IMG/VR virus record: IMGVR_UViG_3300042291_001547
Coordinates: 1-52,394 of that record
Direction: 5' to 3' (one strand)
Source of the DNA: a virus
Length of the DNA stretch: 52,394 nucleotides
Part shown: positions 1,559 to 39,053 of the stretch, piece by piece
Position numbering within the stretch: position 1 is the stretch's first letter
Layout: every line of letters starts with the position of its first letter
Translations under genes and position numbers: made by a program
The notes under the pieces: generated by a model
Told to the model about the DNA's origin: nothing
Databases searched by the model: none
The model's input: only the letters and a program-made list of their open reading frames with translations

Positions 1559-1926
1559 TTGCAGGCTGGGCAGATTGACTTGCCGCGTCGCCTGGATACC
1601 GCCCTGGATATCGCGGCCTGGCTGATGCCGACAAATTTGGCTGCCCGGTAAGCCGTCCAGCCTTTGTCCTGCATCAGGCGTAGCGCCTGGTCGGTTCGGT
1701 AGAAGGGCGAGCCTGTCGCCACCTCGATTTCGGATTCCGGTTCGGCGACTACGTAGACGTGTTCGGTGTCCCATTCGCCTGGGTTATTAGCCCAGACCTG
1801 AGCCTTCCACCGGCCGTCTTCCAGAGTGGCCGAGTACGCCTCGGCCTCCCCGGTTTCCATGTGAGCAATCAGTTTCTCGCGTACGTTGTCAGACCAAGGC
1901 AGGTCTAAAAATTCCTGTCGGTTCAC
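1537..1926 (-). CDS. Small HTH protein, putative DNA-binding regulator
   Basis: 129-aa protein, last gene of the leftward regulatory unit. Start chosen at GTG 1926, which overlaps the TGA of the DUF932 gene in a GTGA junction and has AAAGGAG seven bases upstream; the longer frame to 1971 lacks such a site. The C-terminal third contains a probable helix-turn-helix ('AYRAAKFVGISQAAISRAV') followed by an Arg-rich segment and a CPAC motif that could bind metal with another ligand. The first 70 residues are not recognised. Probably a transcription regulator (inference); the target is unknown. Confidence 0.75.
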   Translation of the reverse strand: MNRQEFLDLPWSDNVREKLIAHMETGEAEAYSATLEDGRWKAQVWANNPGEWDTEHVYVVAEPESEIEVATGSPFYRTDQALRLMQDKGWTAYRAAKFVGISQAAISRAVSRRRGKSICPACNQVLRKP

Positions 1927-2750
1927 GCGGCGACTCCTTTGAGCTGGCGCATACCTTCGGCCAACTGCCACAGCGCGCGGTTAAGCTTGACGTCCTGCTG
2001 AACGCCAGTAACCGGGCGGGTAGTCAACCGGCGTCCGGTCGAAGCACGTCCACCCTGGCCGCCTTTGATCAGGTTTTCCTGGACCACGTTGAAGGTGTTC
2101 CAGAGTGTAGGGGCGGCGTCTTGATGTCTGTGCGGCACCAGGATGCGTTCAGCAGATACCGGAGCGTTGTCGTCCCAACGCAGTTTCAAAGCTTCAGCAG
2201 CAAACAGGCGGCGTTCAGCTGGCAGCAGCTCGATGCCTTTGAACGCCTGCTTGCGGTCTTCGATCTCCTGCACGTTGCGTAGGATCTCGTAACTGCCTTC
2301 GATGACGTTGTCGACGACGTTGCCTGAATGGCGCACACGGACGTCTGTGTTGATGTCGCCGGCGATCAGGCCGTTGCTGCAGACAAAGCGGAAGTACCCT
2401 GCCAGGAGTTGATAAGAGCTGGCGCCGTCGTGACTGTTGATCAGGATGATCTCCGGCACTTCGCCTTCGCTAGTCAGCAGGCTGCGGTGACGCAGGCGCA
2501 CCATGTGACGGGTAAATTCACGCTTACCGACGTCGCGAGTGCGGGACTGGCGAACCTCGTAAGGCGCGAAGCCTTCTTTCCACATACCGCGCAGCACGTC
2601 GATCGTGGGGATGAAGGTGTACTTATCCGAGCGGCTGTGATGCGCTTCGGTGGCCAGCACTGACGGAGCGTAGCGAGCGAACTGTTCGCCAGTGATAGGG
2701 GCGTTGCTGCGAAAAGCGTTGTCTTTCTGGCTGGACGAATATCTGTACAT
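1923..2750 (-). CDS. DUF932 (phage/plasmid-like) protein
   Basis: 275-aa protein of the DUF932 family, common in phages and plasmids, function unknown. The signature 'ILINSHDGASSYQL' and the following 'FVCSNGLIAGD' are clearly visible in the middle third. Start at ATG 2750: AGGAGG lies five bases upstream, whereas the longer frame to 2786 would run back through the hammerhead motif. The mRNA leader of this gene is the 3' product of the putative ribozyme at 2767-2817. Stop overlaps the next start (GTGA). Such proteins often sit with recombination/SSB genes; no enzymatic motif is evident. Confidence 0.85.
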   Translation of the reverse strand: MYRYSSSQKDNAFRSNAPITGEQFARYAPSVLATEAHHSRSDKYTFIPTIDVLRGMWKEGFAPYEVRQSRTRDVGKREFTRHMVRLRHRSLLTSEGEVPEIILINSHDGASSYQLLAGYFRFVCSNGLIAGDINTDVRVRHSGNVVDNVIEGSYEILRNVQEIEDRKQAFKGIELLPAERRLFAAEALKLRWDDNAPVSAERILVPHRHQDAAPTLWNTFNVVQENLIKGGQGGRASTGRRLTTRPVTGVQQDVKLNRALWQLAEGMRQLKGVAA

Positions 2751-2766
2751 GGTGACCTCCTGGGTC

Positions 2767-2817
2767 GGACTCATCAGTACCGGCACATACCGGCAGACGC
2801 CTCGCGGCGTTTCGTCC
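2767..2817 (-). ncRNA. Type II hammerhead ribozyme (candidate self-cleaving RNA)
   Basis: Read on the minus strand from 2817 to 2767, every conserved hammerhead position is present. Stem II 5' strand GGAC (2817-2814); core GAA (2813-2811); stem III ACGCC/GGCGT closed by a GCGA tetraloop (2810-2797); cleavage nucleotide C 2796; stem I TGCCGG/CCGGTA with loop TATGTG (2795-2778, one G.U pair); core CTGATGA (2777-2771); stem II 3' strand GTCC (2770-2767). Stem II is the open helix, so this is the type II permutation. It fills the gap between the stop codon of the 99-aa gene (TAA 2820-2818, directly abutting) and the Shine-Dalgarno of DUF932 (2759-2755). Predicted cut is between 2796 and 2795. The structure fit is seen; activity is inferred. 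Confidence 0.85.
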
Positions 2818-3117
2818 TTATGCTGCGACCTGCTTACGTGCGGTCAGGCGGATAACGGTTGAGCCTTCGCCGATGACGGTGTTGGCTTCGACAGCGCTGC
2901 GGAATGCAAAGTTGTCCCAGAGAACGTCTTTCACAGCTGACCAGTTGGTCTGTTTGCGGCCGACTTGCTGGCTGACGGTAACGCGGAACATGTCTGAGTC
3001 GATCTCAGTCAAGCCGGTGGCCAGGATCTGAGCCTTGATTGCGTCTTCCTGATCTTTCAGGTCGGCGATTGCTGAGCGGAGCTGGGCTAACTTGTCTACC
3101 AAAGTTGTTGCTTTCAT
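2818..3117 (-). CDS. Hypothetical 99-aa protein with N-terminal coiled coil
   Basis: Not recognised by family. The first 40 residues ('LVDKLAQLRSAIADLKDQEDAIKAQI') form a likely amphipathic coiled coil; the remainder is a short mixed alpha/beta region with Q-Q-V-G-R-K-Q and a final 'VIRLTARKQVAA'. ATG 3117 is preceded by AGGAGG at five bases, within the recurrent leader GTCCCAGGAGGAC. It is the first gene after promoter P1 (3157-3185). Its stop codon directly abuts the 5' end of the putative type II hammerhead, so a terminating ribosome would sit on the ribozyme. Coding confidence is good, function unknown. Confidence 0.8.
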   Translation of the reverse strand: MKATTLVDKLAQLRSAIADLKDQEDAIKAQILATGLTEIDSDMFRVTVSQQVGRKQTNWSAVKDVLWDNFAFRSAVEANTVIGEGSTVIRLTARKQVAA

Positions 3118-3120
3118 GCT

Positions 3121-3133
3121 GTCCTCCTGGGAC
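3121..3133 (-). promoter_or_regulatory. Start-associated leader GTCCCAGGAGGAC, copy 1
   Basis: 13-mer containing the Shine-Dalgarno of the 99-aa gene; it is bounded by GTCC/GGAC arms that can pair, with the AGGA in the loop. The same 13-mer precedes the genes starting at 3769 and 4046, and one-base or slightly diverged copies precede 45144 and 2750. Confidence 0.7.
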
Positions 3134-3156: not shown

Positions 3157-3185
3157 ATTAAACTATGCTTGACAGTAACTGTCAA
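3157..3185 (-). promoter_or_regulatory. Promoter P1 with overlapping 17-bp palindromic operator
   Basis: On the minus strand there is a consensus -35 TTGACA (3185-3180), a 17-nt spacer and a -10 TTTAAT (3162-3157), reading into the 99-aa gene 40 nt downstream. The -35 box is the first half of a perfect palindrome, TTGACAGT-A-ACTGTCAA (plus strand, 3169-3185), so a dimeric repressor bound there would cover -35 and spacer. A near-copy with the same geometry is at 4201-4229. The element lies inside the last codons of the lipoprotein gene. Promoter geometry and palindrome are seen; repression, possibly by the XRE protein at 3321-3584, is inference. Confidence 0.8.
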
Positions 3186-3324
3186 CTGTTTTGTTGTAAT
3201 CTGGCCAGCCCAGTTCTCCGTTTGATTCCTCCCACAGCGCGACCATCTCGCAGTGGTGGTTCTGGGCAAGTTCCTGGTCGCCGGCACATGCGGTGAGCAG
3301 GATGAGCAGGGGCAGCAGTTTCAC
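3163..3324 (-). CDS. Small phage lipoprotein
   Basis: 53-aa protein with a compact type II signal peptide: a hydrophobic run 'KLLPLLILLTAC' ending in lipobox L-T-A-C (Cys13), so the mature protein would be a lipid-anchored peptide of about 41 residues in the periplasm. Start at GTG 3324 overlaps the TGA of the XRE gene in a GTGA junction. The mature part has 'HHCEMVALWE' and 'GWPDY', a pattern I associate with unassigned small lipoproteins of Pseudomonas-type phages. It could be a superinfection-exclusion factor or an unusual outer spanin; neither is supported directly. Promoter P1 is embedded in its 3' end. Confidence 0.75.
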   Translation of the reverse strand: MKLLPLLILLTACAGDQELAQNHHCEMVALWEESNGELGWPDYNKTVDSYCQA

Positions 3325-3584
3325 TTTACACTCCGTAGGTGCTTCGGCACCGGCTGTTTGGTTTTCTCCAACACGATGTTGTACCCGAGTACCCGGGCAA
3401 CCGGCGCCAGCTTGTCTATCCTCGGCGCGCCTGTCTTGCCTGCCTTCCAGTTGTACAGCGTGCCCCAGTGGCACCCGGCTTGGGTTGCGATATCACGCAG
3501 CCCTTCGTCGCTGTATTTCCACAATTCGTGGATGATATCCACGAATATTGCTTCCCGAGTGTCTTCGTTGAGTTTAAGTTTCAT
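3321..3584 (-). CDS. XRE-type HTH regulator, candidate repressor
   Basis: 87-aa protein with a likely lambda-repressor-type helix-turn-helix: 'EGLRDIATQAGCHWGTLYNWKAGKT' (helix 2, turn, recognition helix) after an N-terminal helix, and 'RIDKLAPVARVLGYNIVL', which is typical of HTH_3 domains. There is no separate C-terminal dimerisation or peptidase domain. Start ATG 3584 overlaps the preceding stop (ATGA), with GGGGAAG upstream. It lies between two near-identical palindrome-containing promoters (P1 at 3157-3185, P2 at 4201-4229) and is transcribed from P2, so autoregulation is a plausible inference. No integrase is present, so a lysogeny role is unproven. Confidence 0.8.
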   Translation of the reverse strand: MKLKLNEDTREAIFVDIIHELWKYSDEGLRDIATQAGCHWGTLYNWKAGKTGAPRIDKLAPVARVLGYNIVLEKTKQPVPKHLRSVK

Positions 3585-3775: not shown

Positions 3776-3788
3776 GTCCTCCTGGGAC
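3776..3788 (-). promoter_or_regulatory. Start-associated leader GTCCCAGGAGGAC, copy 2
   Basis: Exact copy of the 13-mer, carrying the Shine-Dalgarno of the 62-aa gene (start 3769). Confidence 0.7.
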
Positions 3789-3797
3789 TGGTGGTGG

Positions 3798-4051: not shown

Positions 4052-4064
4052 GTCCTCCTGGGAC
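4052..4064 (-). promoter_or_regulatory. Start-associated leader GTCCCAGGAGGAC, copy 3
   Basis: Exact copy with the Shine-Dalgarno of the 82-aa gene. Its first two bases are the last bases of hammerhead stem III, so the ribozyme fold and the ribosome-binding site are contiguous. Confidence 0.7.
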
Positions 4065-4117
4065 TTGTTTCGGCCTGCTGAGCCTCGTCAGTAGCGCAGC
4101 GTCAGCGCTATACAAGT
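4063..4117 (-). ncRNA. Type III hammerhead ribozyme (candidate self-cleaving RNA)
   Basis: Minus strand, 4117 to 4063: stem III 5' part ACTTGT (4117-4112); cleavage nucleotide A 4111; stem I TAGCGC/GCGCTA (4110-4105 and 4097-4092), perfect 6 bp with loop TGACGCT; core CTGACGA (4091-4085); stem II GGCT/GGCC (4084-4072) with loop CAGCA and one U.G pair; core GAA (4071-4069); stem III 3' part ACAAGT (4068-4063), a perfect 6-bp match. All conserved core bases and the A15.1-U16.1 pair are present. Stem III is the open helix (type III). Predicted cut is between 4111 and 4110. It lies in the P2 transcript and stops 4 nt before AGGAGG of the 82-aa gene. Structure is seen; cleavage is inferred. Confidence 0.88.
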
Positions 4118-4140
4118 TGCCGGTTTGTCCTGAGAGGCAT
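4108..4140 (-). CDS. Possible 10-residue leader peptide
   Basis: ATG 4140 with CAGGAG nine bases upstream opens a frame MPLRTNRQLV that ends at TAG (4110-4108). The predicted hammerhead cut (4111/4110) falls exactly between the last sense codon and the stop, so ribosome passage could affect ribozyme folding or cleavage could produce a non-stop mRNA. Very short and unproven; coincidence is possible. Confidence 0.3.
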   Translation of the reverse strand: MPLRTNRQLV

Positions 4141-4200
4141 CCGCCCCGGCTCCTGGTGTTTGGTCTGCGCCAGTCCGCAGTTGTTCGGTGTTGCAAGGCC

Positions 4201-4229
4201 ATTACATAGTACTTAACAGTAACTGTCAA
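4201..4229 (-). promoter_or_regulatory. Promoter P2 with overlapping palindromic operator
   Basis: Minus strand: -35 TTGACA (4229-4224), 17-nt spacer, -10 TGTAAT (4206-4201). The -35 region is part of an imperfect palindrome, TTAACAGT-A-ACTGTCAA on the plus strand (4213-4229), differing from the P1 palindrome by one base. Expected start of transcription is near 4194, giving a leader of about 150 nt that contains the hammerhead. It would drive the genes at 4046, 3769, 3584 and 3324. Confidence 0.8.
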
Positions 4230-26444: not shown

Positions 26445-27325
26445 GAGGATTGATTGCAGCCGCGCTTGGTGGAGTATCCAGAGGCGTCGGTCAAGTAGCC
26501 GAGAAACAGATTGAAGTTAACTCTCGAAAGGCTTTGATGGAAGCCGAAGAAGAGATGAACGCGCGCCTGGCCGAGGCTGCCGAAGGTCGCGCGATTGCCG
26601 CTGAAGGCCGAGCTGAAACCCGCCTGCTTGCTGCTGAAGGCCGAGCTGATGCTCGCGCGATTGCCGCTGAAGGCCGTTTGGATCCTGTTGAGCGAGAACA
26701 ACTGAGTCTGCTTCAAGCGCAGGTCTCTGGGGTTAGACGTGACAGCGCTTGGACGGAGAAAGAGCAAGGCATTAGAACGCGGCTTGGCGATGCGGTTTTT
26801 GGTTCGGAAGATTATAATACCGCACAGCAAGAACTTGACGCCATGCTGACTACGGGCACCCGCGCGCAACGCGCGCAAGACAACGTTGCTGCGGGCGCCA
26901 GATATGTAGACCTGGCTGAGTTAAATTTTGATCAGGCTGAACAGCTCAGAAAAGACCTTCGCGATGGAAACATTTTTGAGCCAGATGACGTTGCCGACGC
27001 TAATGAACGGATAATTCAGCTTCAAAGAAACGCAGAACGGGCGATGATGGACGCGAACGACTTGCTGTCTGGTGGAGGCAGCGGCGCGCGGCAGACGCCG
27101 ACGCAACCGCGAGTGCCCCTGGGGGCGCAACCGCAAAGCGCTCCGCAACCGCAGAGCGCTCCGCAACCGCAGAGCGCTCCGGGGGTGTCGTCCAGAGGGA
27201 TTATCTCTACGCAACAACTGCTAGGGATTACCCCTTCGCAACCAAGAGACCTTACTTTGTTTTTCAGACCGGGGACTACTATTCCCGTACGGCCGAGAGG
27301 AGAAATGATTAGTGGAGTCTTTTAA
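26441..27325 (+). CDS. Internal virion-region protein with AEGRA repeats
   Basis: 294 aa. N-terminal half is a charged helix with recurring 'AAEGRAxxRxL' units (residues about 40-85); the middle helical region 'QRAQDNVAAGARYVDLAELNF'; then a Gln/Pro/Ser tandem repeat (PQSAPQ) and a C-terminal 'LFFRPGTTIPVRPRGEMI'. Overlaps the giant gene by 14 nt. Probably packaged or chaperoning the giant protein; not recognised by family. Confidence 0.7.
   Translation: MRGLIAAALGGVSRGVGQVAEKQIEVNSRKALMEAEEEMNARLAEAAEGRAIAAEGRAETRLLAAEGRADARAIAAEGRLDPVEREQLSLLQAQVSGVRRDSAWTEKEQGIRTRLGDAVFGSEDYNTAQQELDAMLTTGTRAQRAQDNVAAGARYVDLAELNFDQAEQLRKDLRDGNIFEPDDVADANERIIQLQRNAERAMMDANDLLSGGGSGARQTPTQPRVPLGAQPQSAPQPQSAPQPQSAPGVSSRGIISTQQLLGITPSQPRDLTLFFRPGTTIPVRPRGEMISGVF
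27128..27181 (+). repeat. 18-bp tandem repeat x3 (QPQSAP)
   Basis: CAACCGCARAGCGCTCCG three times in frame, encoding QPQSAP, with one base difference in the first unit. Confidence 0.8.
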
Positions 27326-30300
27326 TTACTTAGCCGCCCGCCAGGCGGGGTATTCTGAAGAAGAGATTGGTCGTTTTCTTGCAAACCAATATTCTTTTGA
27401 CTATGACGGCGCGGTAGCAGAGGGGTACAAGCCTCAAGAGATCGTAGACTTTTTGTCTATCCGAGAAACGAAACCTGTGGCTGCTCCTGAAGTAGAAGAG
27501 CGCACGGTAGGTAATGCTGTCCAGGATTTAGCCGCGTCGTTTGGCGTCGGCACCGGGCAGCTGGTTGGCCTGCTGGGTTCAGCTTACGGCTTGACCACCG
27601 GGGACATGGACAACAGAGCCACTCGATTTGGCGCCAACACTGCTGAGTTCTGGGAGGCGCGTAAAACGCCTATACTCAAAGCCGCTGAAGATTTGCGCCA
27701 GGCCAGGGTTGACGCTGCTGAAGGTGAGTTTGAAAAAGCCGGCGTCGCCATTTGGGAGACTATTAAAAACCCAATGCTGCTTGTCAGCGAAGTCACCAAA
27801 CAGGTGCCTAACTTAGCGGTGGGCGGCCTTGCTGGTTTAGGTGCTAAGACGGTTGGCAAAGTAGGCGCAGCAACTCTTGGCAAAGAACTTAGTGAGCAGG
27901 CGGTAACCAAAATTGGTGTAGGCGCCGCTACGGGCAGTGAGCTTGGTTTGTCTTCGGCTGATTTTGGTCAGTCCGCGTACGACCAGTTGATGGCAATACC
28001 TGACGAGGTGTGGGCTGCAAACCCTGACCTGCAGGAAAGAACCGGTGGAAACCCTGACTTGTTCTTTAGGGTCAAGCGGGAGATGGCCACTGAGCTTGCG
28101 CAGAACAGCGCGATCGCCGGCGGCATTGTAACGTTCGGCCTGAATAAGTTACCCGGCGCAAAGACCATTGAAAAAGTATTGGGTGGCGACGCGTTAACCG
28201 GCACAAGAACTCGACGTGCACTCACGGGTCTCGCAGGCGAAACGGTATCTGAGGGCGCTGAAGAAGTGGCCACACAGCTGTCCGCTAATATCGCTCAAGC
28301 CCAGATAGATCCCAACACTGATTTGACCGCCGGTCTTGGCCAGGCGGGTGGCCTTGGCGCGTTAGTCGGCGGCGCCTTTGGTGCTGGTGCTGGCGCTCTG
28401 TCCCCGCAGAGAGCAGAGGCTCTAGCCCCGTCAGGCTTAGAAAGCCTGTCCGTCGGGCAGACAGACACTATAAACGGCAACATTGTCTCTAGAACCCAAT
28501 CCGGTTTTGACATAACCACTCCGACCGGCATGCGCATTCAGACTGATCTTAGTGGCGCGAACACTATACTTAACCGCCCGGTCGAGGAGCAACGGCCGCG
28601 CGGACTCCTACGCGACGCAACCAACGCCGGTGAAGCGGTATCCGCTGCAGAAGATATTATTGGCAGCATCGACGCAGACATCGAAGCCTTGGAAAGAGAA
28701 GTAGACCTGGCGTCGACTGACGCAATCGTTGAGTCGATTACCCCTGCTCCGATTACCCCTGCTCCGATTACCCCTGCTCCGCAGGAGACCCTTCAGTCTG
28801 GTCGAGGCCTGCTCGCTCAAGAGATGACCGGTACCGCGTCTGTTACCTTGCCTCCGGTTGAACCTGCGCCTACGTTAACCCTGGAGGCATTGGCGTCGGC
28901 TGACATCTCCAGTATGCCCGCGCCTGAGCGACAAGAGTTTTTAGCGGATCTAAATTTTGCCCGTACGGCAGAGCTGCCCGCTCAGCGTCAGAGCGCGCTC
29001 ACCCGTGCAGCAGAGACCTACGGCAGAACAGTTGGTCCTATTCAGCAGCCCGTAGCTCGAGCAACGCCTGAAGAAGCCCTGCAGGCCACCAGGCAGCCTA
29101 CTGCTGAACGTCTGACCACCGCTGCGCCAGACATAGACGCGCTGTTAGGCGCCGACACCCGCGGCCTGGATCAGGAAGACCGTGCAGACTTTAACGCTCA
29201 GCTGGCCATGGCACGCACCGCAGAGCCTGGTCCAGTTCAGACCGCTGCACTTAACCGTGCCGCTGAGATTTACGGCCGAGCGATAGGACCTATCCAGCCG
29301 CGCACACAAGCGCTTGCTGCGGAAAGGGTGACCACTGCAGCGCCTGATTTAGACGCACTGTTGACCGCGGATACCCGCGCCCTGCCACAGGAAGATCGAG
29401 ACGACTTTAACGCTCAGCTGGCTATGGCGCGCACCACAGAGCCTGGCCCCGCGCAGACCGCTGCACTTAACCGTGCTGCCGAGATTTACGGCCGGACGAT
29501 AGGGCCTATTCAGCCGCGCACACAAGGCAGCGCTCGACCCGAAGCGCCAAGACCGACCCGGTTGTTAGGACGAGCCACTGAAACATACACCGCGCCTGAG
29601 CTGCAAAGCTTAGCGGACAACACCAAATTGCCGGAGATTACTCGCCGAGGCGCTCAGATTGAGCTGCGTGCGCGTTCTGATTTCGCGACGTCCTTTAATC
29701 CCACAATGGCGCCCATGCGCACGCAACCTTTAGAGGTGTCAACGAATGTCGAAATCACCAGAGCAGCCCCAGCGACGCTTCAGCAAGGAGGCGCTGCGTC
29801 ATTGCCTGACGCCGCTGTTAACGTACCGACTAGAGCAGATGAAAGACGTGCAGCCTTCCAGCCAATCCTCGACTCCGTCCTGCGCCCCGGCGACCCCAAA
29901 ATAACTCTGGGCGCTCCGACGCCTGAAGCAGAAGCCCAGATCCAGGAGATGAGCAGCATCCTTGGCAGCGCGTTTGGCCAGGATCTGCCCGTGGTGGCGT
30001 TCTCTGATCCTTCGCCAGAATCGCCAAACGGTTTTGCGCTTAAAGGCCAGGCGTTTGTTAACGTGTCCGGGTTGCAGATCTCTGCCCCGCGCACAACGCT
30101 GCATGAGTTTAAACACGTTGTCGAGCAGATTGCACTTGCTGAGCGCGCGGCGGGGCTTACCGACACCGCCGCCCAGGAGTTTACCGAGCAGATAGAAAGC
30201 ATTTTCGACGACATGAGCGAGGAGGGTAAACGCAGCTACGCTGAGAAGCTGTTGTTCACCGCAGAACTTGAAGGCCTTTCTGGCGCTGAGCGGGAGACCC

Positions 30301-33300
30301 GGCTTCAAGAGCTGTTGGCTGACCCACTGCTGCGCTCAGAGATGACCGCTGACTTCCTGGGCAACCGTGCGCAGGATAAAAAGTTTTGGACTGACCTGGC
30401 CGCGGCAGATCCGCAAGGGTTTACCGGGTTCGTTGAGCGCTGGCTGGCCGTTGTTAATAACCTGCTGGCGCAACTACGCGGCGCTAAGAACCAGGGGACT
30501 AAAGAGTCTGCCAGGGTCGACAAGTATATCAAAGACTTGAACAGAGCCAAGCTGACCGCGCAGAGCGCGCTGATTAATTACCGCAAGGCCACTGGCCAGG
30601 CGCCCGTTGCTACGCCTGCCGCAGCCGCAGCGCCTCAGTTCTCTATAAAAGAAGGCGCCTCGTTGGCGGACACTGCATCCTTAGCCGGTGCTAACCGAGT
30701 CTCATCGTCGCAGACCTGGCGAAAGGGGCGGGACTTGAAGGTCGCGCTCCAGCAGCGCGTGATTGACGCAGCTGCCGCGCGGGGCATAGACGTCTCCACC
30801 GATAGCCCCGAGACCCGTGAGTACCTGCGCGAAGTAGGTATGAAAGACGCACTGGCCGCGCTAAACCAAAACCCCAACGCCATTGGCTGGTACGACATTA
30901 AAACGCGCCAGGCCTTAGCCGTGATGTCTCTGGTTCACCCAGAGATCGCACGCGATGAGAACGCCCGGTTTGCGTTTACCTGGGCTTTGGCCGTTACTTC
31001 AAACGGCATGAAGGTAGAGCAGAATTTTGAGTTAGCTGAGAAGGCGTACGATCGGTACAAGCGCGACGGCGTAATGCCGTCAAACTTGGGGGCGGGTACC
31101 GCTGGAAAAGCGATTAACCAATCGCTCGCAATGTTCAACGAACTGCGCGACGCGTGGGGCATCGACAACCTACGCCAGTTCATGCAGACCAATTTTACGG
31201 TTAGCGAGATCACCGGCCTGAGCAAAGACCTGACCCCGGGCGGCGAGTTTGCAAACACCACGGTTAAAGGCGCTGCTATCCTTGGCCCTAAGATCGGCAA
31301 CGGGTTCTTCTCTAACCTGTACGGAGACTTCACCAGCCTGACCATGGATCGATGGCTTATCCGCACCTGGGGACGCTGGACGGGGACGCTTATCAAAGCG
31401 ATGCCTGAGCAGACCGCTCTGGCACGCACCCGGTTATCCAACAACGTGAAGGCTATAGTAGCGAACAAACAAGAGGCCGCTCGGTTAGAGGCGCTCATCG
31501 GCGCTGAGATCACCGCCGACATGGACGTTGATCAGTTGTCCGCGGTGGTACAAAAAGCGTCTATGGATCCTAAGATCCGAGCAAAGCTTAACGAGACTGA
31601 TCTAGGGCAGACCCTGCGACTGGCCGGCAATAGCCTGGCCAAGTATCTCGACGGGCAAAAAGAAGCGCCATCTGGGCCAGAAGAGCGTCAGTACATCCGT
31701 GCCGTGTTTAATGATATACTTGACGAGCTGAATCAGACAGACCAGTATAAAGACCTCATGATGGCAGATCTCCAGGCTGTCCTGTGGTATGCTGAAAAAC
31801 GGCTATACGAAACTGCTAAAGACGACCCAAATCAACTTGCCGCAGACGAAGGCGTCGAAGGTTATGACGACGAGTCTGCGCCAGACTACGCTAACGCCGC
31901 CGCGCGTATAGCTCGTCAGAAGGGCGTCACAGACAAGCGTATTAATGCGACATTAAAGAGAATAGAAAATGAACGATCAACAGCAGCACGATCTGAAGAT
32001 GGCGTCTCGCAAGACGCTGGAGACAGGCAGCCGGCAACAGGTAGAGGCTTTACTCGCCAAGAAAAACGCAAGTTCATTGGAGAGCGAGCCGTCCTCAGAG
32101 TCAGGGCCGATCGAATGGGCGATGCGCAATCACCCGGGTCTTACTCGTCAAAAGGCCAACCAGATGGCGGACGCGTTCGGGTTCTAAAATCTTTAGGTGT
32201 CTCGTACACCAACGAGTGGAAGTTAAACCGAGACGCCGCCACGGCGTTCAGGGCTAATAAGATGCCTGCTCCAGAGTTCCTGGAGTTGGCATCAACTGCA
32301 GAAAATGCTCAGAAATTTGCCGAAAGCATCTCAGAAAATAAAGCCACACATCCTTTTGGCGCAGCTGTTTACGTGTACTCTCCTGAAGAGTACCGAGACA
32401 TGCGCCTGTTCCTTACTGAAGACGGCAAGTCTGGCGTAGCAATCAAGCCTGACGGGGACATCGTTTCTGTGTTCAGTACCGGTGGCGCCGGACGAGCTGT
32501 AATGGAGCTGGCGGTGGCCGCGGGCGGAAGAAAGCTAGACGCCTTTGACACCATCCTCCCAAAGTTCTACGCACCGCATGGATTCCGAGCCGTTGCTCGA
32601 ACCCGGTGGAACGACGAGTTTGCACCAGAAGAGTGGAACAAAGACACGTTCGAAGAGTTTAACAACGGCGAACCCGACGTTGTATTCATGGTTTACGACC
32701 CCGCTAAGATGGACGCCGAGTACAGCGCTAAAGACGGCAAAGTCATGGCTGAGTACGACCGTGCGGTAAGTCTTCAGAACCGTGAGATGAAGCGGTTAAC
32801 GCCGCAGTTCAGCCGCAAGCAGGGCGACGTCCTGGCCAGAGATCCTCGTCTGGAGCAAGCCGCTCAGGGGATGAAGGAAGGTACGGTTACAAGCGCTGAG
32901 TACCGCGAGCTGGTAAATGCAATCAAGCCGGTTACCCCGTATACGGAAGCCCCAGATCCAGCCAAGCCCGAGGACATTCGACGCGCGCTGACGTCTGACA
33001 AACTTGATCGGATCGGCGTGCCCAGTAAAACGCTTAAGGCCGGAGACCCGGTCGGTCTGCGCCTGGATATCCCAGCCTACGCCAACCACGGCGTGTGGGT
33101 TGTCTCTGTTCACGATCAGATACCAGGCTTTGCTGCCGGCAAGTCGATCGGCTACGAGAGCGTGGCTTCGGTTACAAACCCCACCTTTGGCGTCGTTGAA
33201 AGCGCAGCGCTCAACATTGCCTCCGGGAAACCGAAAGCCACCATCGCGGTAATGAAGGGCGACTGGAAACCAATCACTCCTAAGCAAGCATCTGCTACCG

Positions 33301-36300
33301 CCAAGCTTGCTATGGATTCAAAGAGCTGGGCACAGGTGGGCATGGACCCTACCCGGCACGCGTACTTCTACGACCGCGCCACGCTCCAGCCAGTTGTGTC
33401 CGCTGACGAAGCAATCCAGGTGGGACCTCTCGTTCTTGCTAAGAACCCGGTGTACGGTAACAAAGAGGATTTTCATTTTAGCCGTAAGCAGGCCGATGAC
33501 ACCGACGAGCCGGTCAGGATTCGACTGGGTCGAACCGATAACACGGCTGCTAATAAGGCCTTGGATTCTCTCCAGGCTAAGCTTGCGGCCAACCCGCTAA
33601 ACGATAGAGAGCTTACGCGCAAAGGCGCAGCGGTTAACCTGTCCGTGGACAACGGGGCGCTACGCATATCCGATATTCGCAGCACATCACCCGGCCAAGG
33701 CGAGGCTTCAGAGCTGTTGGATATGGTGCTCGCCGAAGCAGACACCGCTGGCACAAAGGTTACGCTTTTCGCAGACAGCTACGTCGAAGACAGCGGGCTT
33801 AACACCGATGCCCTGGTCGATTGGTATTCTCGCCGTGGGTTTGAAGAGGTGCGACGAGACGAAGACGGCGTAGAAATGCGTCGGTACCCTGCTAATCTGC
33901 AGTTCAGCCGTAAGCAGGGCGGCGACGAGGTTGCAGACATCCGCGATGCCCGTGAAGAGCGGAACCTGCGAATGTTCTCTCAAGATTTACGGTCTCGAAT
34001 TTCAGATTCAGTTAAAACTCGCGCCGAGAATACCCGTAAAGTCGATGCTGAGGGGGGTTTCCTGGGCTTAGAAGTAGGAGACACTTTCTTGACCCAGGGG
34101 GCGGGAGGGCGCCGCTGGCGTAATAAGGTTATCGCTAAAAGTTTATCGCGTGTCGGTCCCTCTATGCGTAGGCCTACAGGTAACCTGAACCCTATATCTT
34201 CTGAATTTGAATATACTTTCGACAATACGGTTTACACCCCTGCCTTGTACGTAGAGACCATTGGTCCTGACGGAGACGTGTCGCAGACTACAAACCTGCT
34301 CTATCTCTTGGACCAGACCGGCTACACTAAAATGGGAGGGCCGAAGTTCAGCCGTAAGCAGACAGACACGCCCGACATCCGATTCAGCCTCAAGCAGCAG
34401 CCGTTTTACAGCAGCCTTAAAAGGGCTGTGGGTGATATGCCTGAGCGTATGCGCACGCAGCCTGCTAAACAGTGGGTGCAGTGGCTCACCTCGCCATCGA
34501 ATCAGAGCCGCTTCGGGTTTAAGAAAGACGAGGTCAGCTGGTCAGGCGTTGAGGATTACCTCAACCTACGCGGCAAGGATAAGGTCACTGCTGACGACAT
34601 CATCCAGTACCTGAACGAAAACAACGTGGTTGTACAGGACGTTGTGCTCGGTGGTACGCCGGTAGAAGAAAGCGCATACCCTGCCGGCACGTTCATGCTT
34701 CCGGAGTCTGGAGAGACTGGCGACATGGCGTATTGGCGCGAAGAGCTACAGCGCATTGCCGAGGAAGAAGAACTAGACGTTGATACTTTAATGGATGAGC
34801 TGGAGGATGTATCCGGTGAATCTATGCCTGTCGATGCTCCCGAAGACTCTGTTCAATACTCGCAGTACGTGGCAGGGCAGGGCGAAAATTACCGTGAAGT
34901 GCTGATCACTCTACCTGTCAAACAGGTTACAAAAACCTGGGTTGCTGACGACACTAAGAATGGTTGGCGGGTAAAAGACCAAGACGGATTGTATCTAGGC
35001 ACTATCCGTAAAGATAACGCCAAGACCGCGGAAGAAGCTATCGCCGAAGCCGCGCTTACGTTTCGAGGACGCAAACGTGCAGAGGAGGTGGACTATAAAT
35101 CTAGCCACTGGAGCGCGCCCAACGTTCTAGCCCATTTACGCGTGGATGACCGGTTTACATTAACGCCGTTGACGCCTGATGAAATAGCCAAGTTAGAGCT
35201 AATAGGCAAGGCTGAACCTAAGTTGAGCGCTGCGCGAAATAGATTAAGAGTTGCGCGGCGCGGTGCTGCTTTACGCCGCGACGTTCGTATCGATGCCCTT
35301 AAAGATGAGCTGCGGCCACTGGTGCGCGCGGGGCAGCTGCCCTTATCAGAGATGATTGCCAGACTGGATGAGGTGTCTAGCGAAGAAGATCCTTTAGTTA
35401 AAAAAGCAGCTGAAGAATTTCGCCAGTTGCAGGACTCTCTTTCAATTCCAAATACCCCTGTTCAAAATCGACAGAGCGTATTGTTCGTCAACGAAGTCCA
35501 GTCCGACTGGGGACAAGATGCTCGTAAAAAGGGTGTCCGGTCAGAGACTTTTGTAAAAGATGACAGATCAGTGTGGTCGGCTTTTGACGAATATACCGAC
35601 ACTCTTTACAGCGGCCGTTTTGACCGGGCGCTGGACTACTTAAGAATCAGATCTATAAATCCTGTGAGTTTTTTAAGGAATTCGTCTACTGATGAAATAA
35701 AAACGTTCTTCAACAAGTACGAACCTGAAAACGCAGCCGAGATAATTCCTTTGGCGGAGACTTATAAAAACGTAAGCGCGTTGCGTGAATCCCAGGCGGT
35801 GTCTTCTAAAGGCGTGTCCCCTGCACCGTTCATAGGCGACACCGAATCCTGGGCTACCTTGGCTATCAAGCGCGCGGTAATCCTGGCGGTGGACGGTGGC
35901 TACGATAAGTTGGCTTTCGTCAACGGCGAGCAAGCTGCTGAGATGTTTGATCTAAGTAAGCGCGTGGGAGAGATCTTATACAATGAGGGAGACGGTCGAT
36001 ACTCGTTAGTAATATACAGCCCTGACAATGACTTAATTCATAAGCAGGATAACGCCTCCCCAGACGATGTCGCTAACCTAATTGGTAAAGACCTGGCTAA
36101 TAAAATAGTCAACGGTGAAGGGGTGTACAGTGATAGTTACGGCGCCACGGTTATCTCGGGACTCGACCTGAAAGTCGGCGGTGAAGGCATGGCCGGTTTC
36201 TACGACGGCATCGTGCCTAACATCCTGCGTAAACTTGCCAAGAAGTTCGGCGGCACGGTAGCTGTTGAGCCAGTCCAGGTCAGCCCGGGACGTAGCAAGA

Positions 36301-39053
36301 CCAATGATCAGCTGACCTTAACCATCACCGACGATCTGCGTAAGCAGGTTGAGGGTGTCGGCCTGCCTTTGTTTAGCCGCAAGCAGAACATTTTCGGGCA
36401 GCCTTTGCCAGCCAGCAACTGGTCTGTCGAAGACGGCAAGATGGACGAAACGATCTACAATCTGCAGGACAAGCTGGTCGACACCAAGCGTGTGCTCCAG
36501 GGCATACGTAAAGCCAGCAACACTGTCGCCGACAGGTGGGACGGGTATCTGCAGGAGACGTTGTACCACGGTCGCACCGCTAAGCGCACAACCGACTTTA
36601 TTGATGACGAGCTGTCGCCTTTGATCAAGGGTATGGGCGCTGCCAACGTCAGCATGAAGGAGTTCGACACATACCTGCATAATCGCCACGCTCAAGAGCG
36701 TAACGCTGTAATAGCCCAGAGAAACCCAGCGCTGCCAGACGCCGGCTCGGGCATAAAAAGCGGTGACGCGCGTGCGTACCTGGCGGCTATGGATCCAAAT
36801 CGACGGGCGACTCTCGAGGCTCTTGCTCAGAAAGTAGACGCCATAACTGAGAAGACCCGCCAGGCGCTACTGGCCGGCGGTCTTGAGAGCCAGGCGGCCA
36901 TCGACGCGTGGGAGGCCACCTACAGTCAGTACGTGCCGCTCATGCGGGAAGAGCTAGACTTCGACCCCAGCAGTGGCTCAGGTGGCTCAGGCGCCGGGTT
37001 CGACGTTAAAGGCAGCTCGTCCAGGCGCGCCGTTGGATCTTCCTCAAGAGCGGTGGTGGACATCCTGGCCAACATCGCTATGCAGCGTGAGCGTGCTATC
37101 GTGCGTGCTGAGAAGAACCGAGTCAGCCAGGCTATGTACGGGCTGGCCATACAGAATCCGAACCCTGGCTTCTGGCTGCCGATAAACCCCGAAGCGATTA
37201 AAGACAAGACGGCTTTGGCAGCAGAGCTGGTGTCGATGGGCATAAACCCTTTGCAAGCGCAGAACATCGCCGAGCAACCAAAACAGACCTACGTTGACCC
37301 ACGCAGCGGGCGTGTTACTACCCGGCTAAAATCCTTCCTGGCAGACAATCCAAACGTGCTCGTAACCCGGGTTAATGGCAAAGACAGGTTCCTGCTCTTT
37401 AACAGCCAGGACGAGCGCGCCAACCGCATGGTCAAAGCCTTGAAGAACCTGGACGCGGATCAGCTTGGCCGCGCTTTGTCTACGGTCGCGGTAGGCACCC
37501 GGTGGTTCGCCAGCGTGAACACCCAGTACAACCCTATCTTCGGCGCGATCAACTTTACCCGCGACGTACAGGGCGGCATGCTTAACCTGTCAACTACACA
37601 AATCGCAGGCAAGCAGAAGGACGTTGCAAAAAACACCATGCCCGCGCTGATCGGGATCTATCGAGACCTGCGCAGTGGCACGCCAAGCCAGTGGGCTACT
37701 CTGTGGGAAGACTTCCAGCAGGCGGGCGGTCAGACCGGGTTCCGTGACCAGTTCAGCCAGAGCGAAGAGCGCGGCAAGGCTTTGCAAAAAGAACTTGACG
37801 CGCTGCGCGACGGGTCGGCTAAGAAAGCTGGTAAGGCTGTTCTTAACTGGTTGTCTGACTACAACACTGCTATGGAAAACGCGGTGCGACTGTCTGCGTA
37901 CAAGGTGGCGCTGGACAACGGCGTCTCTAAAGAGCAGGCCGCGTCATTAGCTAAAAACTTGACGGTCAACTTCAACAAAAAAGGCCAGGTCGCAACGCAG
38001 ATGGGCGCCTTGTTCGCGTTCTTTAACGCCAGCGTGCAGGGTTCTGCCCGGTTGTTGGAGACACTGAAAGGTCCAGCCGGCAAGAAGATTGTCTACGGCG
38101 GGCTGCTCCTTGGCTCCGCCCAGGCGCTGGCTATGGCTGCGGCTGGATTTGATGAAGACGAGCCGCCGCAGTTCCTGCGCGAGCGCAACATCATCATCCC
38201 AATCGGGGACAAGAAGTACCTGGCCGTGCCAATGCCACTGGGCTTTAACGTAATCCCCAACACCGGCCGCGTGGTAACCGAGTGGGCGATGTCTGGCTTT
38301 GAGAACACCGGCGCAAGGATGTTTGACTTACTCGGGTCTTTCGTTGACATGTTTAACCCGGTCGGCAACGCCGGGTTCTCCACGCAGACAATTCTACCTA
38401 CCGTTGCAGATCCGGTTGGGGCGCTGTTTGAAAACAAAGACTGGTCAGGCAACCCGATTGCAAAAGAACAATTTAGCGGTCTTGCTCCTACACCCGGTTA
38501 CACTCGCGCAAAAGACACGGCCAGTTGGTTATCCAAAGAGCTGTCTTACTATCTGAACCTGGCGTCCGGGGGCACAGAGTTTGCTCCTGGCGCGCTAAGC
38601 CCCACACCAGACCAGCTTGATTACCTGTTTAGTCAAATTACCGGCGGTCTGGGTAGAGAGATCATGAAGACCGAACAAACCGCCACGGCGTTAATAACCG
38701 GTGAGGATTTGCCACCGTTCAAGATACCGTTGTTTGGGCGATTGTACGGGGACACTAGCACCAGCGCTGCGGATGCTAACCGGTTCTACGAAAACATCCG
38801 GCGGATGAACATCCACAAGGAAGAGATCGATGGTCGCCAGAAATCTCGCAGGCCAGTAGGTGAGTACCTGCGAGAAAACCCTGAAGCCAGACTGGTCACC
38901 GCTGCGTCAAGTACTTACCGCGAGGTGCAGCAGATGCGCAATCGTAAGCGCGAGATGGTGGAGCGGGGCGCGTCGCGAGAGTCTGTCCGGATAATGGAGC
39001 AGCGAATAGCCTCTCGCATGAGGCAGTTCAACGATCGATTGGATCGTATGTAA
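27312..39053 (+). CDS. Giant polyvalent virion protein (3913 aa) with LPD38-like C-terminus
   Basis: GTG 27312, GAGAGGAGA upstream, one uninterrupted frame. Order: two N-terminal 'GYxxxEIxxFL' units; Gly/Ala-rich membrane-active region (about 85-360); three approximately 58-aa repeats (524-735); zincin-like H931-EFK-H935; a 'MDRWLIRTWGR' domain (about 1125-1370); a possible GNAT-like domain (1626-1803); an unassigned 'ANHGVWVVSVHDQ' domain (1884-2053); a second GNAT-like domain 'SPGQGEASELLDM' (2065-2195); the widespread 'GENYREVLITLP ... VLFVNEVQSDWGQD ... SWATLAIKRA' domain (2366-3014); and a C-terminal LPD38-like region. Seven FS[RIL]K[QE] motifs separate the segments. Polyvalent proteins are ejected with DNA and are thought to act against host defences; domain assignments are from pattern memory. 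Confidence 0.85.
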   Translation: MESFNYLAARQAGYSEEEIGRFLANQYSFDYDGAVAEGYKPQEIVDFLSIRETKPVAAPEVEERTVGNAVQDLAASFGVGTGQLVGLLGSAYGLTTGDMDNRATRFGANTAEFWEARKTPILKAAEDLRQARVDAAEGEFEKAGVAIWETIKNPMLLVSEVTKQVPNLAVGGLAGLGAKTVGKVGAATLGKELSEQAVTKIGVGAATGSELGLSSADFGQSAYDQLMAIPDEVWAANPDLQERTGGNPDLFFRVKREMATELAQNSAIAGGIVTFGLNKLPGAKTIEKVLGGDALTGTRTRRALTGLAGETVSEGAEEVATQLSANIAQAQIDPNTDLTAGLGQAGGLGALVGGAFGAGAGALSPQRAEALAPSGLESLSVGQTDTINGNIVSRTQSGFDITTPTGMRIQTDLSGANTILNRPVEEQRPRGLLRDATNAGEAVSAAEDIIGSIDADIEALEREVDLASTDAIVESITPAPITPAPITPAPQETLQSGRGLLAQEMTGTASVTLPPVEPAPTLTLEALASADISSMPAPERQEFLADLNFARTAELPAQRQSALTRAAETYGRTVGPIQQPVARATPEEALQATRQPTAERLTTAAPDIDALLGADTRGLDQEDRADFNAQLAMARTAEPGPVQTAALNRAAEIYGRAIGPIQPRTQALAAERVTTAAPDLDALLTADTRALPQEDRDDFNAQLAMARTTEPGPAQTAALNRAAEIYGRTIGPIQPRTQGSARPEAPRPTRLLGRATETYTAPELQSLADNTKLPEITRRGAQIELRARSDFATSFNPTMAPMRTQPLEVSTNVEITRAAPATLQQGGAASLPDAAVNVPTRADERRAAFQPILDSVLRPGDPKITLGAPTPEAEAQIQEMSSILGSAFGQDLPVVAFSDPSPESPNGFALKGQAFVNVSGLQISAPRTTLHEFKHVVEQIALAERAAGLTDTAAQEFTEQIESIFDDMSEEGKRSYAEKLLFTAELEGLSGAERETRLQELLADPLLRSEMTADFLGNRAQDKKFWTDLAAADPQGFTGFVERWLAVVNNLLAQLRGAKNQGTKESARVDKYIKDLNRAKLTAQSALINYRKATGQAPVATPAAAAAPQFSIKEGASLADTASLAGANRVSSSQTWRKGRDLKVALQQRVIDAAAARGIDVSTDSPETREYLREVGMKDALAALNQNPNAIGWYDIKTRQALAVMSLVHPEIARDENARFAFTWALAVTSNGMKVEQNFELAEKAYDRYKRDGVMPSNLGAGTAGKAINQSLAMFNELRDAWGIDNLRQFMQTNFTVSEITGLSKDLTPGGEFANTTVKGAAILGPKIGNGFFSNLYGDFTSLTMDRWLIRTWGRWTGTLIKAMPEQTALARTRLSNNVKAIVANKQEAARLEALIGAEITADMDVDQLSAVVQKASMDPKIRAKLNETDLGQTLRLAGNSLAKYLDGQKEAPSGPEERQYIRAVFNDILDELNQTDQYKDLMMADLQAVLWYAEKRLYETAKDDPNQLAADEGVEGYDDESAPDYANAAARIARQKGVTDKRINATLKRIENERSTAARSEDGVSQDAGDRQPATGRGFTRQEKRKFIGERAVLRVRADRMGDAQSPGSYSSKGQPDGGRVRVLKSLGVSYTNEWKLNRDAATAFRANKMPAPEFLELASTAENAQKFAESISENKATHPFGAAVYVYSPEEYRDMRLFLTEDGKSGVAIKPDGDIVSVFSTGGAGRAVMELAVAAGGRKLDAFDTILPKFYAPHGFRAVARTRWNDEFAPEEWNKDTFEEFNNGEPDVVFMVYDPAKMDAEYSAKDGKVMAEYDRAVSLQNREMKRLTPQFSRKQGDVLARDPRLEQAAQGMKEGTVTSAEYRELVNAIKPVTPYTEAPDPAKPEDIRRALTSDKLDRIGVPSKTLKAGDPVGLRLDIPAYANHGVWVVSVHDQIPGFAAGKSIGYESVASVTNPTFGVVESAALNIASGKPKATIAVMKGDWKPITPKQASATAKLAMDSKSWAQVGMDPTRHAYFYDRATLQPVVSADEAIQVGPLVLAKNPVYGNKEDFHFSRKQADDTDEPVRIRLGRTDNTAANKALDSLQAKLAANPLNDRELTRKGAAVNLSVDNGALRISDIRSTSPGQGEASELLDMVLAEADTAGTKVTLFADSYVEDSGLNTDALVDWYSRRGFEEVRRDEDGVEMRRYPANLQFSRKQGGDEVADIRDAREERNLRMFSQDLRSRISDSVKTRAENTRKVDAEGGFLGLEVGDTFLTQGAGGRRWRNKVIAKSLSRVGPSMRRPTGNLNPISSEFEYTFDNTVYTPALYVETIGPDGDVSQTTNLLYLLDQTGYTKMGGPKFSRKQTDTPDIRFSLKQQPFYSSLKRAVGDMPERMRTQPAKQWVQWLTSPSNQSRFGFKKDEVSWSGVEDYLNLRGKDKVTADDIIQYLNENNVVVQDVVLGGTPVEESAYPAGTFMLPESGETGDMAYWREELQRIAEEEELDVDTLMDELEDVSGESMPVDAPEDSVQYSQYVAGQGENYREVLITLPVKQVTKTWVADDTKNGWRVKDQDGLYLGTIRKDNAKTAEEAIAEAALTFRGRKRAEEVDYKSSHWSAPNVLAHLRVDDRFTLTPLTPDEIAKLELIGKAEPKLSAARNRLRVARRGAALRRDVRIDALKDELRPLVRAGQLPLSEMIARLDEVSSEEDPLVKKAAEEFRQLQDSLSIPNTPVQNRQSVLFVNEVQSDWGQDARKKGVRSETFVKDDRSVWSAFDEYTDTLYSGRFDRALDYLRIRSINPVSFLRNSSTDEIKTFFNKYEPENAAEIIPLAETYKNVSALRESQAVSSKGVSPAPFIGDTESWATLAIKRAVILAVDGGYDKLAFVNGEQAAEMFDLSKRVGEILYNEGDGRYSLVIYSPDNDLIHKQDNASPDDVANLIGKDLANKIVNGEGVYSDSYGATVISGLDLKVGGEGMAGFYDGIVPNILRKLAKKFGGTVAVEPVQVSPGRSKTNDQLTLTITDDLRKQVEGVGLPLFSRKQNIFGQPLPASNWSVEDGKMDETIYNLQDKLVDTKRVLQGIRKASNTVADRWDGYLQETLYHGRTAKRTTDFIDDELSPLIKGMGAANVSMKEFDTYLHNRHAQERNAVIAQRNPALPDAGSGIKSGDARAYLAAMDPNRRATLEALAQKVDAITEKTRQALLAGGLESQAAIDAWEATYSQYVPLMREELDFDPSSGSGGSGAGFDVKGSSSRRAVGSSSRAVVDILANIAMQRERAIVRAEKNRVSQAMYGLAIQNPNPGFWLPINPEAIKDKTALAAELVSMGINPLQAQNIAEQPKQTYVDPRSGRVTTRLKSFLADNPNVLVTRVNGKDRFLLFNSQDERANRMVKALKNLDADQLGRALSTVAVGTRWFASVNTQYNPIFGAINFTRDVQGGMLNLSTTQIAGKQKDVAKNTMPALIGIYRDLRSGTPSQWATLWEDFQQAGGQTGFRDQFSQSEERGKALQKELDALRDGSAKKAGKAVLNWLSDYNTAMENAVRLSAYKVALDNGVSKEQAASLAKNLTVNFNKKGQVATQMGALFAFFNASVQGSARLLETLKGPAGKKIVYGGLLLGSAQALAMAAAGFDEDEPPQFLRERNIIIPIGDKKYLAVPMPLGFNVIPNTGRVVTEWAMSGFENTGARMFDLLGSFVDMFNPVGNAGFSTQTILPTVADPVGALFENKDWSGNPIAKEQFSGLAPTPGYTRAKDTASWLSKELSYYLNLASGGTEFAPGALSPTPDQLDYLFSQITGGLGREIMKTEQTATALITGEDLPPFKIPLFGRLYGDTSTSAADANRFYENIRRMNIHKEEIDGRQKSRRPVGEYLRENPEARLVTAASSTYREVQQMRNRKREMVERGASRESVRIMEQRIASRMRQFNDRLDRM
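28736..28780 (+). repeat. 15-bp tandem repeat x3 (ITPAP)
   Basis: GATTACCCCTGCTCC three times perfectly, in frame in the giant gene, encoding a flexible ITPAP linker. Confidence 0.85.
29190..29526 (+). repeat. Duplicated 121-bp segment in giant gene
   Basis: 29190-29310 and 29406-29526 are near-identical 121-bp copies (a handful of mostly synonymous differences), each encoding the second half of the approximately 58-aa 'FNAQLAMARTxEPGP..TAALNRAAEIYGRxIGPIQPRTQ' repeat. A third, older copy of the protein repeat lies at about 28881-29050. Confidence 0.8.

What the first reader, a model, noticed from the sequence alone, without database searches (positions are those of the whole stretch)
4063..4117. 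Type III hammerhead ribozyme in the P2 early leader
Seen: minus-strand 4117-4063 meets every hammerhead requirement: CTGACGA and GAA cores, stem I TAGCGC/GCGCTA (6 of 6), stem II GGCT/GGCC (one U.G), stem III ACTTGT/ACAAGT (6 of 6), the A15.1-U16.1 pair and cleavage base A at 4111. Established: these core bases and three helices define the ribozyme, and hammerheads occur in some phage and bacterial genomes. Inference: the P2 leader self-cleaves a few nucleotides before the ribosome-binding site of the 82-aa gene. Independent formation of two perfect 6-bp helices plus a complete core by chance is unlikely.
Basis: partly seen in the sequence, partly recalled or inferred. Interest (0 to 1): 0.93.

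Follow-up and report, generated by a model that had tools for sequence, protein, structure and literature searches.

The report
Hammerhead ribozyme in phage operon leader
An uncultured phage carries a small self-cutting RNA (a hammerhead ribozyme) in the leader of a gene cluster, with a second one downstream and a conserved folded RNA just before the first; phage hammerheads are known, but this one is real, conserved through compensating mutations, and tied to a leader RNA that matches no known family.

Summary
Minus-strand 4117-4063 has a complete type III hammerhead: core, three helices, A17 at 4111. Rfam RF00008 hits it at 31.4 bits (E 1.8e-6 in this record), below its 48.5-bit gathering score. 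A model built from 14 unrelated viral type III hammerheads scores it 40.8 bits. Eight homologous leaders keep all 13 counted pairs, four with changes on both sides; one relative swaps half of stem I with full compensation.

Three additions. (1) The window holds a second hammerhead, type II, at 2817-2767 (-), between the 99-aa gene's stop codon and the ribosome site of a DUF932 gene. Relatives carry one to four hammerheads; more distant relatives place a type I before their DUF932 gene. (2) The type III belongs to the leader, not to the 82-aa gene: 4180-4051 is 80-100% conserved while the first gene differs between relatives. (3) Directly upstream (4180-4119) lies a conserved two-hairpin, pseudoknotted RNA with no Rfam match.

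Most likely role: cutting transcripts just before ribosome sites, here separating a structured leader from the mRNA. Clustered phage hammerheads of all three types were reported in 2011, so this is a new member of a known kind. The cut lies 51 nt before the Shine-Dalgarno, not 'a few'. Cleavage itself is untested.

The parts
4063..4117 (-). Type III hammerhead ribozyme; predicted cut between A4111 and U4110
4119..4180 (-). Conserved structured leader RNA: hairpin 1 4180-4176/4169-4165, its loop 4173-4170 pairing with 4156-4153 (pseudoknot), hairpin 2 4150-4146/4123-4119 with inner 4145-4143/4138-4136
   Evidence: no Rfam match
4201..4229 (-). Putative promoter: TTGACA 4229-4224, 17-nt spacer, TGTAAT 4206-4201; start of transcription estimated near 4194
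   Evidence: read by eye, same layout in L010, L284 and L020; not listed by the promoter scan
4052..4064 (-). Ribosome-site hairpin GUCC CAGGA GGAC holding the Shine-Dalgarno AGGAGG (4059-4054)
   Evidence: GUCC/GGAC repeated in the lineage, GACC/GGUC before DUF932, AUCC/GGAU in L368
3798..4046 (-). 82-aa gene of unknown function, first gene behind the leader here
   Evidence: no Pfam or PHROG family
2767..2817 (-). Second hammerhead, type II; predicted cut between C2796 and U2795
   Evidence: descriptor; Rfam RF02276 28.4 bits, E 4.8e-4, gathering 37
1923..2750 (-). DUF932 protein gene directly behind the type II hammerhead
   Evidence: Pfam PF06067 E 1.4e-45
2818..3117 (-). 99-aa gene; its stop codon lies directly before the type II hammerhead

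Best explanation
A genuine type III hammerhead ribozyme forms the 3' half of a conserved leader RNA at the start of a leftward phage operon. During transcription the RNA folds and cuts itself after A4111. The upstream piece (about 80 nt, a two-hairpin pseudoknotted element) is released with a 2',3'-cyclic phosphate end, and the mRNA begins with a 5'-OH placed directly on the stem I hairpin, followed by a ribosome site. A type II hammerhead does the same between the 99-aa and DUF932 genes. The probable effect is to divide a polycistronic transcript into units whose 5' ends are a blunt hairpin with a 5'-OH, expected to resist 5'-end-dependent decay, while uncoupling the leader RNA from the mRNA. 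Shown here: sequence, structure, conservation with covariation, and position before ribosome sites. Inferred: cleavage, the fate of the products, and the effect on stability. The confidence given is for this being a genuine hammerhead; the processing role alone is about 0.6.
For: Complete core and helices. RF00008 31.4 bits, E 1.8e-6 in this record. Model R1, trained on 14 viral type III hammerheads outside this lineage, scores the window 40.8 bits, E about 2e-9. In eight homologous leaders 104 of 104 cells pair, 4 pairs change on both sides against 1.2 in shuffles and 0 when slid. L410, L368 and L381 were fetched by the leader pattern, blind to the ribozyme, and all carry it; L410 replaces UAGCGC/GCGCUA by UGCAGC/GCUGCA and A17 by C17. 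Conservation 0.80-1.00 over 4180-4051, falling to 0.17-0.44 just past it in the gene. Second hammerhead in the window. Over 358 distinct viral hammerheads the median distance to the next Shine-Dalgarno start is 32 nt on the same strand against 1216 nt on the opposite strand; all 78 multi-hammerhead loci have one orientation.
Against: The Rfam score is below gathering. In isolation the window sequence folds 1.1 kcal/mol better into a non-hammerhead structure (-18.2 against -17.1), although the energy model omits core and loop contacts and for L284 the hammerhead is the best fold. A17 instead of the commoner C17 may cut more slowly. The loop I-loop II contact is not identified. No RNA data exist, so transcription, cleavage and end protection are unproven. 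The IMG/VR survey is selected by core patterns, so its frequencies are not unbiased.
Confidence: 0.93

Rival explanations
1. Chance resemblance or a decayed hammerhead that keeps the shape but not the activity.
For: Score below the Rfam cut-off; competing fold slightly more stable.
Against: About one match with 16 or more pairs per 73.6 Mb at random; compensatory changes and invariant core in relatives; high conservation with sharp edges; further hammerheads in the same operons.
Confidence: 0.04
2. The conserved structure is mainly a translation or transcription regulator (ribosome-site hairpin, attenuator), and hammerhead cleavage is incidental.
For: Every gene checked in the region has a covarying Shine-Dalgarno hairpin NNCC CAGGA GGNN, with or without a hammerhead; in the window two bases of stem III's 3' strand are shared with that hairpin.
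Against: The shared bases are absent in L410 and L020, and the catalytic core is invariant, which a plain hairpin would not need.
Confidence: 0.1
3. The upstream leader is an aptamer or sensor that controls the ribozyme (a natural allosteric ribozyme), rather than an independent module cut off by it.
For: The leader ends 1-2 nt before stem III and the two are conserved together in eight relatives.
Against: The leader also occurs without a hammerhead in L040, L091 and probably L043, where the contig ends soon after; the spacer to stem III varies.
Confidence: 0.06

Closest known systems
Clustered bacteriophage and prophage hammerheads of types I, II and III (Perreault et al. 2011, PMC3088659)
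   Same: All three circular permutations; several per operon, flanking single genes; processing of long phage transcripts proposed and cleavage shown in vitro and, for A. tumefaciens, in E. coli.
   Different: That paper, as read here, describes no conserved leader RNA fused to the first hammerhead and does not mention DUF932. This lineage has both, and the hammerhead before DUF932 is type II in some relatives and type I in more distant ones.
Rfam RF00008 Hammerhead_3 and RF02276 Hammerhead_II
   Same: Same core, helices and order of strands.
   Different: Both window examples score below the curated cut-offs; loops differ from the model consensus.
HK022 put antiterminator RNA (PMC9378689), compared with the leader element only
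   Same: About 70 nt, two stem-loops, directly behind a phage operon promoter; put works without being tethered through the transcript, so a cut behind it would be tolerated.
   Different: No sequence comparison was made; the leader here has a loop pseudoknot, while put is described with an RNA triplex and no pseudoknot; antitermination is untested.

Membership tests
Hammerhead ribozyme, type III | Invariant core CUGANGA and GAA with A15.1-U16.1 | tested here: met
   invariant in eight leaders
Hammerhead ribozyme, type III | Three helices, stem III open, stems I and II closed by loops | tested here: met
Hammerhead ribozyme, type III | Base 17 is not G | tested here: met
   A4111; C in L410
Hammerhead ribozyme, type III | Score above the curated Rfam gathering threshold | tested here: not met
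   31.4 against 48.5 bits. This is a curation cut-off, not a structural feature of the ribozyme; the E-value is significant.
Hammerhead ribozyme, type III | Tertiary contact between loops I and II | tested here: inconclusive
   loop I UGACGCU and loop II CAGCA conserved in most of the lineage, but no consistent pairing found by inspection
Hammerhead ribozyme, type III | Self-cleavage 3' of base 17 | not testable with these tools
   needs RNA
Hammerhead ribozyme, type II (window 2767-2817 -) | Core plus strand order II-III-I-II with stem II open | tested here: met
   a relative's copy passes Rfam gathering (L284)
HK022 put RNA (leader element) | put sequence and fold, antitermination through the RNA polymerase beta' zinc-binding domain | not tested
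   only size, position and two-hairpin layout compared (PMC9378689)

The most novel reading that the evidence does not exclude
The 62-nt pseudoknotted leader is a new RNA class acting on the phage operon (a put-like antiterminator bound to RNA polymerase, or a small RNA), and the type III hammerhead exists to cut it free from the mRNA while transcription continues: a ribozyme used to separate a regulatory RNA from its message.
Probability: 0.2. Interest if true: 0.78.

Novelty: new member of a known kind. Interest (0 to 1): 0.52.

Why it matters
What bacterial and phage hammerheads do is still called an open question in a 2017 review (PMC6155905). This lineage gives an unusually clear case: a fixed leader-ribozyme-ribosome-site cassette under strong selection, with the gene behind it exchanged between relatives, and a DUF932 gene preceded by a type II hammerhead in some relatives and a type I in others. 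That makes the role directly testable in one small operon. The leader element itself appears to be an undescribed structured RNA.

Tried and rejected
BLASTN of the region against 50,697 phage records gave no close relative, and the leader itself only short chance matches. Homologues of the 82-aa protein outside the lineage (L003-L009, L012-L018) have unrelated leaders without the type III hammerhead, which argues against a tie to that gene. Other weak Rfam matches in the region (pntA, Plastid-rps12, sau-13, RAGATH-25) have E 0.06 or worse within the search, lie well below threshold and were set aside. A mutually exclusive switch between stem III and the Shine-Dalgarno hairpin was considered and dropped, because the overlap is missing in two relatives. 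Model R1 lost stem I when MAFFT misaligned the training set; it still found the window. Six bacterial contigs matching a leader pattern were not confirmed by model R2.

Full report
Observation. One statement needs correction. The predicted cut, 4111/4110, is 51 nt before the Shine-Dalgarno (4059-4054) and 64 nt before the ATG (4046). It is the 3' end of the ribozyme that lies 3 nt from the Shine-Dalgarno.

Not chance. Rfam's type III model hits the place at 31.4 bits: E 1.8e-6 for this record and 1.7e-4 over 1.2 kb and all 4227 families, though under the 48.5-bit gathering score, so a default scan of the window reports nothing. A descriptor for all three permutations found 18 matches with at least 11 helix pairs, and one with at least 16, in 73.6 Mb of random sequence with the composition of these loci. 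The window has two, with 16 and 17. A covariance model trained on 14 viral type III hammerheads from outside the lineage gives the window 40.8 bits, E about 2e-9; its alignment had lost stem I, so the test rests on the core and the other helices.

Homologues. Eight homologous leaders (window, L284, L010, L020, L023, L368, L381, L410) pair in all 104 cells of the 13 counted pairs. Four pairs change on both sides, against 1.2 on average in shuffles and none when the partner is slid. L410 has UGCAGC/GCUGCA in place of UAGCGC/GCGCUA and C17 in place of A17; L010, L368 and L410 change U-A to C-G in stem III. L368, L381 and L410 were retrieved by a pattern in the upstream leader, so they were not chosen for having a hammerhead. 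Across 16 viral type III examples 11 of 16 pairs covary, but those were chosen partly for having stems.

A second hammerhead. The window also has a type II hammerhead at 2817-2767 (-), starting right after the stop codon of the 99-aa gene and ending 5 nt before the Shine-Dalgarno of the next gene (RF02276 28.4 bits, E 4.8e-4). That gene encodes a DUF932 protein (PF06067, E 1.4e-45). Among relatives, L023 has one type III with a type II before DUF932; L284 has one III and two II; L010 and L011 have one III and two to three II. In L284 a type II copy passes the Rfam threshold (37.7 against 37). More distant relatives by terminase (for example L027, L053) carry a type I hammerhead about 40 nt before a 322-aa DUF932 protein. 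So a hammerhead recurs before DUF932 in different permutations; whether this is by descent or by replacement was not tested.

The leader module. Identity to seven relatives is 0.80-1.00 in every 10-nt block from 4180 to 4051, drops to 0.17-0.44 in the gene behind it, and is 0.29-0.70 in front of it. By BLASTN the leader is 85-95% identical while neighbouring coding DNA is mostly 67-77%. The first gene differs among relatives: a homologue of the 82-aa gene in L023, other genes in L284, L010, L020 and L410. The ribozyme therefore belongs to the leader, not to the 82-aa gene.

The element upstream. At 4180-4119 lies a second conserved RNA. Hairpin 1 varies as CUGCG/CGCAG, CUGCU/AGCAG and CAGCU/AGCUG; its loop CYGG pairs with a downstream CCRG, and the variable position co-changes C-G to U-A; hairpin 2 changes G-C to A-U at two positions. 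RNAalifold finds both hairpins unaided. A model of it also finds L040, L043 and L091, which have no type III hammerhead behind the leader, although L043 ends soon after it (these three were among the sequences used to build the model). Rfam has no match. Position, size and two-hairpin layout recall HK022 put RNA, about 70 nt just behind the PL promoter and active without a transcript tether (PMC9378689); this is a resemblance, not a test.

Ribosome-site hairpins. The Shine-Dalgarno sits in a small hairpin that varies as GUCC/GGAC, GACC/GGUC and, in L368, AUCC/GGAU. It is present before genes with and without hammerheads.

Mechanism. Among 358 distinct hammerheads in the fetched viral loci, the next Shine-Dalgarno start lies at a median of 32 nt on the same strand, against 1216 nt on the opposite strand and 461 nt from random same-strand positions; all 78 loci with several hammerheads keep one orientation (the sample was selected by core patterns). 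The best reading is transcript processing just before ribosome sites. In types II and III the 3' product begins exactly at stem I, so the mRNA would start with a 5'-OH on a blunt hairpin. That this protects it from 5'-end-dependent decay is inference from general knowledge of bacterial RNA decay. The upstream product would be the separate leader RNA.

Known or new. Perreault et al. 2011 (PMC3088659) reported hammerheads of all three types clustered around phage genes, proposed transcript processing, and showed cleavage in vitro and in E. coli; reviews agree (PMC6155905, PMC7761336). The finding is a new member of a known kind. What appears not to be described is the leader element and its fixed fusion to a hammerhead; the literature search covered open-access papers only.

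Limits. No RNA data. The competing fold of the isolated window sequence is 1.1 kcal/mol better than the hammerhead, while for L284 the hammerhead is the best fold. The loop-loop contact was not resolved. The promoter was read by eye and was not listed by the scan. The host is unknown.

Noticed in passing
window 4119-4180 (-); L284, L010, L020, L040, L091: Conserved two-hairpin RNA with a covarying loop pseudoknot directly upstream of the type III hammerhead; no Rfam family; also found without the hammerhead in more distant relatives.
   Followed up: partly
window 2767-2817 (-): Second hammerhead, type II, filling the gap between the 99-aa gene's stop codon and the ribosome site of a DUF932 gene.
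   Followed up: yes
L025, L027, L028, L047, L052, L053, L057, L064: Type I hammerheads about 40 nt before a DUF932-type gene, each followed by a short covarying hairpin (CUGCC/GGCAG, CCGCC/GGCGG, CUGCG/CGCAG) in the 3' product.
   Followed up: partly
window 4052-4064, 3121-3133, about 3777-3789 and 2754-2766 (-): Shine-Dalgarno sequences sit in a small covarying hairpin NNCC CAGGA GGNN before several genes of the operon.
   Followed up: partly
window 3169-3185 and 4213-4229 (-): The same near-palindrome TTGACAGTTACTGT(C/T)AA overlaps two putative promoters, possibly an operator for the 87-aa regulator-like gene at 3321-3584 (-).
   Followed up: no
window 27312-39053 (+): A single 3913-aa open frame, apparently a giant virion or internal protein.
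   Followed up: no
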